Origin: Bacteroidales bacterium
Lineage (GTDB): Bacteria > Bacteroidota > Bacteroidia > Bacteroidales > VadinHA17
Length of the DNA stretch: 50,924 bases
Direction of reading: 5' to 3'
NCBI GenBank assembly: GCA_003141715.1
Contig: PLNF01000075.1
Coordinates: forward strand, 1 to 50,924
Part shown: piece after piece, positions 29,324 to 30,665 of the stretch
Numbering within the stretch: the first letter of the stretch is position 1
Layout of the letters: every line of letters begins with the position of its first letter
Translations under genes and position numbers: made by a program
Notes under the pieces: generated by a model
The model's input: the letters and a program-made list of their open reading frames with translations, nothing else
Databases searched by the model: none
Told to the model about the DNA's origin: nothing

Positions 29324-29623
29324 TTAGCAACAGTTTGATTTTGAGTCAGAACAGCTGCACGTAGGTTCTGAGTTCCTTAGTATCCCATTAATAATGCCTG
29401 CAGCACAACCGACACCTGATTTCACTGTTATTGCATTTACCTGGCAATTTAATGCACATGCACCGCATTCCATACAATAATCTCTTCTTACTATGTGAGC
29501 CTTCTTCCCGGAAAGTTCAAAAACTTCGTGAGGACATACCTTTATACATATTCCACACCCGTTACATGTAGCTTCACACAAACTAAGTGTAACAACATCT
29601 GGCAGATATAATAAATCTTTCAT
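29324..29623 (-). CDS. hgcB: HgcB, dicluster ferredoxin of mercury methylation
   Basis: 99 aa from the ATG at 29623; the frame opens at a TTG at 29671 overlapping hgcA. Two 4Fe-4S motifs are clear: CNGCGICIKVC (Cys20, 23, 26, 30) and CMECGACALNC (Cys50, 53, 56, 60). Beyond an ordinary ferredoxin there is GVGCAAGI with Cys73 and a terminal Cys98-Cys99, both HgcB hallmarks thought to bind mercury. HgcB reduces the corrinoid of HgcA and may hand over Hg(II). It lies 10 bases after hgcA and 1 base before acr3. Confidence 0.93.
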   Translation of the reverse strand: MKDLLYLPDVVTLSLCEATCNGCGICIKVCPHEVFELSGKKAHIVRRDYCMECGACALNCQVNAITVKSGVGCAAGIINGILRNSEPTCSCSDSKSNCC

Positions 29624-29633
29624 AATCTTAATA

Positions 29634-30665
29634 TTAAATAAATTTCCCGACAACCTGTAAAACAATACCAATTACTGCAAACCCTATCTGAAAGGGCACT
29701 GAGATCTTCATCTCTTTTTTGACTCCCGACAATGAAGTATATGTTGATGAACCCGTAAAATTCATTGCCAGGAAGGAGGAAATCGCTGTCATAATGAGAA
29801 ACCAGGATATTATTTCAAAGATATTTCTTCCAGTAAATTTCGACAATAAAAGGATTAGAAAAACCACTCCCCCGGCATAAAATCCCTTTAGAGAAAATTG
29901 CCTTGCAGGAAGATACGGAAGAAACATCGGAGTAATTACAATTCCTGAAATATATGCAAGAAATACTTTCAAAATTGCAGGTCCGCCTTCGCCCGAAAAA
30001 TCTTTGTAAGAAATACCGTTGCCGCTCAGTCCGGATATTAAAAAGAGAACTGCCATTGCTCCCAGGAGGTAAAATTTCCCATATATAAAATCATTGGGAA
30101 TGAGCTTTATCCGGTCTTTAAAACCGAAAGTCACTCTCCTCATTTGTCTGTCGGCTCTATAACCATCACTGATAAATTTTTTTATATCAGATGCGCGAAC
30201 CGGACCATAATGAACATTAAACCCGGTTTCCTCTTTAACCTTGTGAGCAGCAACCCCTGTAGCACCCAGCTGTGGCAGGATCAGCCGTTTGTGATTCACA
30301 ACTTTTTCAAGCGATACCAGTCTTATCCTGTTCACAAGTTCCTTTGTACCGAATGTACCCTTACCTGCGGCACACCAGACATTTACTCCTTTAGTATCTA
30401 AAACCAGTATCCATCCATTCTCTCCTGATAGATTTTTACGCAGAGCATCGAAAGAAAGCTTGTAATTTGCAGTTACAAAAACATCGGATTCCGGATCGGG
30501 AGAACCAAAGGCATAGAGCCCGGGACTGACCCGGTAATTGTTACGATTAATTCCCCATCGCACCATAACAGCACCAAAAAAATCTGAGGAATTTAACTCA
30601 GTTGATACCAGTGGAACAACAGTACCCGAGACTGGAATATTCCCAATTAAAAAAGAATCTTTCAT
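29634..30665 (-). CDS. hgcA: HgcA, corrinoid protein of mercury methylation
   Basis: 343 aa. The N-terminal cobalamin-binding domain holds the diagnostic cap-helix motif NVWCAAGKGTFGT with Cys98, the proposed lower cobalt ligand. It also has RWGINRNNYRVSPGLYAFG upstream and ILPQLGATGVAAHKV downstream, as in the corrinoid iron-sulfur protein family. The C-terminal part has about five membrane helices and the conserved MNFTGSSTYTSLSGVKKEM. With HgcB it methylates Hg(II) to methylmercury, drawing methyl groups from a tetrahydrofolate-type donor. Its start lies 1 base after arsC, and hgcB follows in 10 bases. All motif residues look intact. Confidence 0.95.
   Translation of the reverse strand: MKDSFLIGNIPVSGTVVPLVSTELNSSDFFGAVMVRWGINRNNYRVSPGLYAFGSPDPESDVFVTANYKLSFDALRKNLSGENGWILVLDTKGVNVWCAAGKGTFGTKELVNRIRLVSLEKVVNHKRLILPQLGATGVAAHKVKEETGFNVHYGPVRASDIKKFISDGYRADRQMRRVTFGFKDRIKLIPNDFIYGKFYLLGAMAVLFLISGLSGNGISYKDFSGEGGPAILKVFLAYISGIVITPMFLPYLPARQFSLKGFYAGGVVFLILLLSKFTGRNIFEIISWFLIMTAISSFLAMNFTGSSTYTSLSGVKKEMKISVPFQIGFAVIGIVLQVVGKFI

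What the first reader, a model, noticed from the sequence alone, without database searches (positions are those of the whole stretch)
29324..30665. Intact hgcAB mercury methylation genes in a Bacteroidota genome
Seen: HgcA with NVWCAAGKGTFGT, five-helix membrane part and MNFTGSSTYTSLSGVKKEM. Also seen: HgcB with two CxxCxxCxxxC motifs, GVGC at Cys73 and a terminal Cys-Cys. Established: hgcA and hgcB are both required for microbial methylmercury formation and were first characterised in Desulfovibrio and Geobacter relatives; Bacteroidota carriers are less studied. Inference: this organism has the potential to methylate mercury.
Basis: partly seen in the sequence, partly recalled or inferred. 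Interest (0 to 1): 0.92.

Follow-up and report, generated by a model that had tools for sequence, protein, structure and literature searches.

The report
Mercury-methylation genes inside arsenic-resistance operon
A Bacteroidota bacterium carries the two known mercury-methylation genes inside its arsenic-resistance operon, at the position where some sister species carry an arsenic-methylating enzyme; the genes are of a known kind, but the alternation hints at why bacteria keep them.

Summary
Window 29324-30665 (- strand) holds full-length hgcA and hgcB; both pass their curated NCBIfam cut-offs (433.9 bits against 275; 114.9 against 99) and keep the residues known to be needed. The closest named HgcA is from a fen Bacteroidales MAG (93%). 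Bacteroidetes hgcA carriers, and hgcAB flanked by arsC and acr3, are published (PMC7438021 passages), so this is a new member of a known kind.

In the genus the module directly upstream of acr3 is hgcAB in 12 and the arsenite methyltransferase gene arsM in 16 of 32 full-length acr3 loci; 3 have neither, 1 is cut. No genome of 62 has both at the curated cut-offs, though 4 of 16 hgcA+ genomes hold a weaker ArsM-like gene elsewhere. My paper searches did not show this alternation. It suggests one methylation module per ars operon. HgcAB acting on arsenic is possible, not shown; 3 of 16 hgcA+ congeners have no Acr3 match, which argues against it.

The parts
29634..30665 (-). hgcA: corrinoid, membrane-bound methyl carrier of mercury methylation, 343 aa
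   Evidence: NF040863 433.9 bits (cut-off 275), E 3.5e-130; NVWCAAGK, Cys98; five hydrophobic segments
29324..29623 (-). hgcB: dicluster ferredoxin of mercury methylation, 99 aa from the ATG (a TTG start at 29671 is possible)
   Evidence: NF040864 114.9 bits (cut-off 99); Cys20/23/26/30, 50/53/56/60, 73, 98, 99 from the translation
30667..31086 (-). arsC-like: thioredoxin-type arsenate reductase relative (low-molecular-weight phosphatase family), ends 1 nt before hgcA
   Evidence: best NCBIfam match TIGR02691, 129.6 bits, under its cut-off of 174.3; Pfam LMWPc 75.2 bits, over its cut-off
31083..31418 (-). arsR: ArsR/SmtB metalloregulator, overlaps arsC by 4 nt
   Evidence: NF033788 65.5 bits (cut-off 55)
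28249..29322 (-). acr3: arsenite efflux permease, starts 1 nt after hgcB
   Evidence: TIGR00832 434.3 bits (cut-off 282.8); the only Acr3 found in the genome
31432..31448 (-). putative ArsR operator, proximal copy, AACGTATATTTACGTCA
   Evidence: only the two copies in the whole genome at up to 2 mismatches; kept at a similar distance from arsR in congeners
31460..31476 (-). putative ArsR operator, distal copy, AACGTATTTATACGTCA
   Evidence: as above
27328..28218 (-). LysE-type transporter 30 nt after acr3; possibly co-transcribed here, but in relatives about 2.8-3.7 kb lies between acr3 and it, so it is probably a neighbour and not part of the system
   Evidence: Pfam LysE 59.7 bits; spacing

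Best explanation
An intact mercury-methylation pair, laid out as the middle module of an arsenic-resistance operon arsR-arsC-hgcA-hgcB-acr3. Shown by sequence: family membership, operon layout, twin palindromic sites before arsR. Inferred: ArsR bound to the twin sites silences all five genes and lets go when arsenite (perhaps also Hg(II)) binds it; ArsC reduces arsenate, Acr3 exports arsenite, HgcB reduces the HgcA corrinoid and hands Hg(II) to it, and HgcA passes a corrinoid-bound methyl group, probably drawn from the methyl-tetrahydrofolate pool, to Hg(II), giving methylmercury that leaves the cell. In this genus the operon position just upstream of acr3 usually takes one methylation module: arsM in some species, hgcAB in others. 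HgcAB therefore probably serves as a toxic-metal handling module that is switched on by, and inherited with, arsenic resistance. Which metal gives the selective benefit is not settled.
For: Curated models passed by HgcA, HgcB, Acr3 and ArsR. Gene gaps of -4, +1, +10 (with the ATG of hgcB) and +1 nt. Twin 17-bp sites with near edges at -14 and -42 from the arsR start, no third copy at up to 2 mismatches in 3.7 Mb; of ten genus relatives with window-like ArsR (69-90% identity where measured), eight keep both sites, L121 keeps one and L154 none; L040 (Prolixibacteraceae) has a weaker pair (3 and 1 mismatches) at the same spacing. Module directly upstream of acr3 in 32 full-length genus loci: hgcAB 12, arsM 16, neither 3, contig end 1. 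At curated cut-offs hgcA is in 16 and arsM in 18 of 62 genus genomes, both in 0, expected 4.6, hypergeometric P 0.0015; on the SdhA tree (57 genomes) independent evolution gives zero overlap in 0.6% of simulations. The best Acr3 tree of 66 proteins needs 12 changes between hgcAB and arsM among its 56 rows of these two kinds. MetH over its cut-off in the genome.
Against: No expression, methylation or binding data. ArsC scores under its curated cut-off. The exclusion holds only at the curated ArsM cut-off: 4 of 16 hgcA+ congeners (G006, G019, G020, G047) have a weaker ArsM-like match (177-182 bits, cut-off 263) on other contigs. The independent-pairs test on the SdhA tree found no pair in which hgcA and arsM went the same way but was not significant (median p 0.5). 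Exclusion is not universal: 6 of 65 hgcA+ genomes outside the genus have arsM over the cut-off (5 of 50; 1 of 15); Ignavibacteriae L032 has both in one cluster, and weaker ArsM-like genes stand next to hgcAB in L037 and L074. 3 of 16 hgcA+ congeners (G027, G048, G020) had no Acr3 match.
Confidence: 0.82

Rival explanations
1. HgcAB in this operon acts on arsenic: a corrinoid-dependent counterpart of ArsM that methylates As(III) (or As and Hg alike), the product leaving by a permease.
For: hgcAB takes the operon position of arsM directly upstream of acr3, with zero co-occurrence at curated cut-offs in 62 congeners; recurrent replacement on the Acr3 tree; putative arsenic-type regulator and operator.
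Against: The catalytic and Hg-handling cysteines match mercury-methylating HgcAB, with no sign of a changed active site. 3 of 16 hgcA+ congeners lack any Acr3 match, and L117 keeps hgcAB with no ars gene typed nearby. Some genomes hold both, and 4 of 16 hgcA+ congeners hold a weaker ArsM-like gene. I know of no report of arsenic methylation by HgcAB (recall).
Confidence: 0.1
2. The neighbourhood is hitchhiking: ars operons are mosaic stretches in which unrelated modules settle, and hgcAB gains only promoter access.
For: HgcA of the genus and family is one supported clade (98) but the Acr3 of 13 hgcAB loci is not (AU p 4e-5); ArsR type also varies, for example G049 has 93% Acr3 but 52% ArsR identity; the locus decays or loses pieces in several congeners.
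Against: In the genus the nearest typed gene upstream of acr3 is hgcAB or arsM in 28 of 31 readable loci, with room for another gene in between in one only (L166, 507 nt, not examined), which plain hitchhiking does not predict. HgcA, Acr3 and SdhA identities correlate (0.67-0.68 over 12 genomes), so free mobility is not supported either.
Confidence: 0.25
3. The pair is a CODH/ACS corrinoid protein with an ordinary ferredoxin, or an HgcAB-like fusion relative.
For: Pfam names only CdhD for HgcA and 4Fe-4S families for HgcB; the only solved relatives found are CFeSP gamma/large subunits.
Against: HgcA model 433.9 bits over its cut-off; PRK04165 70.8 and HgcAB_like 196.2 bits, both under theirs; two separate genes; cap-helix Cys present.
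Confidence: 0.01
4. Assembly or binning error: the contig does not belong to a Bacteroidota genome.
For: The genome is a 148-contig assembly with 4.98% contamination.
Against: Gene order from dCMP deaminase through ars-hgcAB to the LysE gene recurs in several congeners, and the closest named HgcA are Bacteroidales.
Confidence: 0.02

Closest known systems
HgcA/HgcB of Pseudodesulfovibrio mercurii (Desulfovibrio desulfuricans) ND132, NCBIfam NF040863/NF040864
   Same: Two separate adjacent genes; cap-helix Cys, five membrane segments, two 4Fe-4S motifs and Cys73 of HgcB at the same residue numbers, a terminal Cys pair (ND132 from PMC7305189 passages)
   Different: Phylum; here inside a full ars operon with arsC and acr3. 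For ND132 I only read citing passages about its ArsR-like regulator; the 2023 paper itself is not held
hgcAB flanked by acr3 and arsC, McDaniel et al. 2020 (PMC7438021, passages)
   Same: Same gene neighbours; arsR and arsM also reported close to hgcAB in some methylators; Bacteroidetes vadinHA17 carriers with high hgcA transcription in fen
   Different: The alternation of hgcAB and arsM at one operon position is not in the passages that I saw; I did not read the whole text, and figures are not held
arsR-arsC-arsM-acr3 operons of congeners, e.g. L154 (G017)
   Same: ArsR 69%, ArsC 68% and Acr3 90% identical to the window's; same position upstream of acr3
   Different: arsM in place of hgcAB (G017: NF008823 350.7 bits, cut-off 263); the twin operator sites are not found there
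HgcAB-like fusion protein with CpaM (NF043039, NF043040)
   Same: HgcA-like corrinoid domain, membrane part, dicluster ferredoxin
   Different: One chain, next to its own methyltransferase; present in the same family (L100); the window's HgcA is under that model's cut-off

Membership tests
HgcA (NF040863) | Curated equivalog score | tested here: met
   433.9 bits, cut-off 275
HgcA (NF040863) | Strictly conserved cap-helix Cys (N-V-W-C-A motif region) | tested here: met
   NVWCAAGK, Cys98; N95, V96, W97, C98 invariant in 30 of 30 aligned HgcA; 78 of 81 HgcA of 300 aa or more match N.WC..G[KR], 3 (L059, L061, L079) do not and were not examined further
HgcA (NF040863) | Corrinoid domain followed by five membrane helices | tested here: met
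   Pfam CdhD at residues 43-164; five merged hydrophobic segments after residue 190. By hydropathy only: the structure prediction never returned
HgcB (NF040864) | Curated score, two CxxCxxCxxxC motifs, Cys73, C-terminal Cys | tested here: met
   114.9 bits, cut-off 99; all motifs in the translation; 67 of 76 HgcB relatives of 80 aa or more have all three marks, 8 lack a Cys-Cys near the end, 1 also the Cys73 motif
Functional Hg methylator | Methylmercury formation, lost on removal of hgcA or hgcB | not testable with these tools
   needs a culture or enrichment
ars operon | arsR, arsC and an arsenite permease co-directed with operon spacing | tested here: met
   (arsC by best match, under its cut-off); co-transcription itself not tested
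Thioredoxin-type ArsC (TIGR02691) | Curated equivalog score | tested here: not met
   129.6 bits, cut-off 174.3, though the best match; the cysteine pairs CTGNSC and CDDANETC are present in the translation. Called ArsC-like by context, not by cut-off
ArsR metalloregulator controlling hgcAB | Family score, operator next to the operon, metal response | tested here: inconclusive
   NF033788 65.5 bits, cut-off 55; twin sites unique in the genome; binding and metal response not testable here

The most novel reading that the evidence does not exclude
hgcAB and arsM are interchangeable modules of one operon position: HgcAB is a second, corrinoid-based metal(loid) methylation module of the ars system, and its native, selected role in Bacteroidota is in the arsenic (or mixed As/Hg) stress response, with mercury methylation as part or by-product of it.
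Probability: 0.15. Interest if true: 0.85.

Novelty: new member of a known kind. Interest (0 to 1): 0.45.

Why it matters
Why bacteria keep hgcAB is an open question (PMC10349881 introduction, passage). A genus in which hgcAB and arsM fill the same operon position, scattered over the species tree, gives natural matched pairs to test whether arsenic exposure drives hgcAB carriage, transcription and methylmercury output. It also flags arsenic as a possible environmental switch of methylmercury formation.

Tried and rejected
Rejected: CFeSP or plain ferredoxin identity. Rejected: one origin of the hgcAB-acr3 pairing in the genus and family (AU p 4e-5 for 13 loci, 7e-6 for 11; quick tree, groups chosen after a first look at it); for the 8 loci of the window's own Acr3 subtype one clade was not rejected (p 0.38). 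Rejected: strict exclusion of hgcA and arsM in general. Not supported: free mobility of hgcAB (HgcA-SdhA identity correlation 0.68). Promoter not settled: 35 promoter-like matches against 20.8 expected by shuffling. The context labels are rough (two loci with hgcAB directly before acr3, L114 and L119, count as 'one of arsC/acr3' since no arsC was found; ArsM was not counted), so I count instead. Genomes are draft assemblies; absence of a gene in one of them is weak evidence.

Full report
Observation. The stretch 29324-30665 on the - strand holds two intact genes. HgcA (343 aa) scores 433.9 bits to NF040863 (cut-off 275) and HgcB (99 aa from the ATG at 29623) 114.9 bits to NF040864 (cut-off 99). 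The competing models score below their cut-offs: acetyl-CoA decarbonylase/synthase gamma 70.8 of 306, HgcAB-like fusion 196.2 of 285. The residues reported as essential in ND132 (cap-helix Cys; HgcB Cys73; at least one terminal Cys for full activity; passages of PMC7305189) are all present. Five hydrophobic segments follow the corrinoid domain. The window's genome is a 3.7-Mb assembly, 94.42% complete with 4.98% contamination, with one hgcA, one Acr3, no ArsM over the cut-off (best 66.5 bits) and a MetH over its cut-off. No solved structure of HgcA was found; the only sequence relatives in the PDB copy at E up to 0.01 are three CFeSP gamma/large subunit sequences.

Where it sits. On the same strand lie arsR (31083-31418), arsC (30667-31086), hgcA, hgcB and acr3 (28249-29322), with gaps of -4, +1, +10 and +1 nt (with the ATG of hgcB). 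Acr3 scores 434.3 bits (cut-off 282.8), ArsR 65.5 (cut-off 55); ArsC best matches the arsenate reductase model but under its cut-off (129.6 of 174.3). Upstream of arsR are two copies of AACGTATWTWTACGTCA, at 31432-31448 and 31460-31476. The window has no other match at up to 3 mismatches apart from the same two sites read on the other strand, and the whole genome has only these two at up to 2 mismatches, the backwards-read control giving 5. I scanned up to 200 nt upstream of ArsR genes in related loci. Of ten genus loci with window-like ArsR, eight keep both sites (at most one mismatch each), L121 keeps one and L154 has none. Eleven other ArsR genes (in L107, L110, L114, L116, L118, L119, L152, L162, L055) have none at up to 3 mismatches; L168 had no upstream sequence; L040 (Prolixibacteraceae) has a weaker pair at the same spacing. 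I read these as ArsR operators; that is inference.

The module next to acr3 in the genus. I searched all 62 held genomes of the genus with the window's Acr3; 36 have a match. It gave 32 full-length places at 62% identity or more; I fetched the neighbourhoods and typed eight gene families with profiles built from the window's proteins and one congener's ArsM. Nearest upstream of acr3 stands hgcAB in 12 (in G035 hgcB is cut by an assembly gap), arsM in 16, neither in 3 (G003, G005, G019's second operon), and 1 (G053) is cut by the contig end. Room for a further gene between module and acr3 exists only in L166 (507 nt, not examined). One ArsM was scanned on its own: NF008823 329.7 bits, cut-off 263.

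Co-occurrence. In the family, 117 genomes, ArsM is over its cut-off in 34 and a true HgcA is present in 17: 19 matches less the HgcAB-like fusion in G068 and the decayed copy in G008. In the genus it is 18 and 16 of 62 (one of the 16, G020, is a partial hgcA), with none holding both; 4.6 expected, hypergeometric P 0.0015. This depends on the cut-off: weaker ArsM-like matches of 177-182 bits occur in 4 of the 16 hgcA+ congeners (G006, G019, G020, G047) and 182.5 bits in G089, all on other contigs than hgcA. Kinship does not explain it simply: on a tree of the SdhA gene (57 of 62 genomes had it; 15 hgcA+, 17 arsM+) hgcA needs 10 and arsM 13 changes, and two traits evolving independently on that tree overlap in zero genomes in 0.6% of simulations. 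The stricter independent-pairs test was under-powered and not significant. Outside the genus, of 65 named hgcA+ genomes, 6 have ArsM over the cut-off (5 of 50; 1 of 15), so the exclusion is a tendency of this group, not a law. These 65 are those of the best 80 of 223 confirmed matches that lie outside the genus, so they lean towards HgcA like the window's.

History. HgcA of the genus plus one genome of another genus in the family form one supported clade in a tree of 81 HgcA, but the Acr3 of 13 of these loci do not (AU p 4e-5), nor do 11 of them (p 7e-6); the 8 of the window's own Acr3 subtype may (p 0.38). On the best Acr3 tree of 66 proteins, hgcAB and arsM need 12 changes; supported branches alone force 10 for the label hgcAB against all other rows. 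G011 is a clear mosaic: HgcA 82% and HgcB 90% identical to the window's, but Acr3 75% and ArsR 56%. Against free mobility, HgcA, Acr3 and SdhA identities correlate at 0.67-0.68 over 12 genomes. At the window's own chromosomal place (dCMP deaminase on one side, LysE transporter on the other) congeners show the full operon (L106, L108, L112, L113), acr3 gone (L109), arsC and acr3 not there (L115), no ars gene typed (L117), and hgcA, hgcB and acr3 decayed (L121). L111, L118, L120 and L155 share the LysE side only: full operon in L111 and L118, hgcA cut short in L120, hgcAB absent with arsC and acr3 111 nt apart in L155, whose other side differs.

How it most likely works. HgcAB methylates Hg(II) as in known methylators, and is made when ArsR is released by a toxic metal. 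The methyl donor is inferred to come from the methyl-tetrahydrofolate and corrinoid pool. Because the position is otherwise used by arsM, I read hgcAB as a metal-handling module of the ars response. Whether arsenic itself is a substrate is open, and the retention of hgcA in 3 of 16 congeners without any Acr3 match speaks against an arsenic-only role.

Compared with what is known. Passages of PMC7438021 state that hgcAB can be flanked by acr3 and arsC, that arsR and arsM can lie near, and that vadinHA17 Bacteroidetes lead hgcA transcription in a fen. Passages of PMC10349881 cite experimental ArsR control of hgcAB in ND132 and count arsR within three genes upstream of hgcA in 14 of 31 confirmed methylators; that paper found ars-associated genes on 4 of 35 of its own hgcAB contigs and arsR on none. 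Passages of PMC12953829 report arsR genes not close to hgcAB in a blue hole. Passages of PMC13362967 only cite the ArsR control. I saw no statement of hgcAB and arsM alternating in one operon position in these passages or in the listings; papers not held, including the 2020 and 2023 studies by Gionfriddo and, from the reference lists only, the 2020 study by Goni-Urriza, could contain it.

Verdict. The finding is correct and ordinary in kind; its setting is the interesting part.

Noticed in passing
L100 892-2716 (G068, same family as the window's genome): HgcAB-like fusion protein (NF043039, 466.5 bits, cut-off 285) next to the corrinoid-protein-associated methyltransferase CpaM (NF043040, 285.1 bits, cut-off 180), function not known to me.
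   Followed up: partly
L121 4490-6865 (G008): Orthologous locus in which hgcA, hgcB and acr3 survive only as short pieces while arsR and arsC look whole: a methylation locus being lost.
   Followed up: partly
L056 against L051: A contig filed as Peptostreptococcaceae carries an arsC-hgcAB-acr3 operon whose HgcA pairs with a Bacteroidales one (support 97): recent transfer or a misbinned contig.
   Followed up: no
window 31548-31763 (-): 71-aa putative lipoprotein with a CPC motif near its end, between arsR and the dCMP deaminase gene; similar small proteins lie upstream of arsR in L108 and L112; no Pfam match.
   Followed up: no
window 27328-28248: The LysE-type gene lies 30 nt after acr3; in L108, L112 and L155 about 2.8-2.9 kb lies there with an aminotransferase-like, a phosphatidyltransferase-like and a nucleotidyltransferase-like gene (my reading of the translations), so the window's lineage seems to have lost them.
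   Followed up: partly
window 14970-16442 (-): Caspase-domain protein (Peptidase_C14, 136.9 bits) fused to a Fib_succ_major domain.
   Followed up: no
L106 4047-4287 (G035): hgcB appears absent in an automatic reading only because an assembly gap cuts it.
   Followed up: yes
G006, G019, G020, G047 (places): A second, weaker ArsM-like methyltransferase group (177-182 bits to NF008823, cut-off 263) sits away from the ars operon in several congeners, hgcA+ and hgcA- alike.
   Followed up: no
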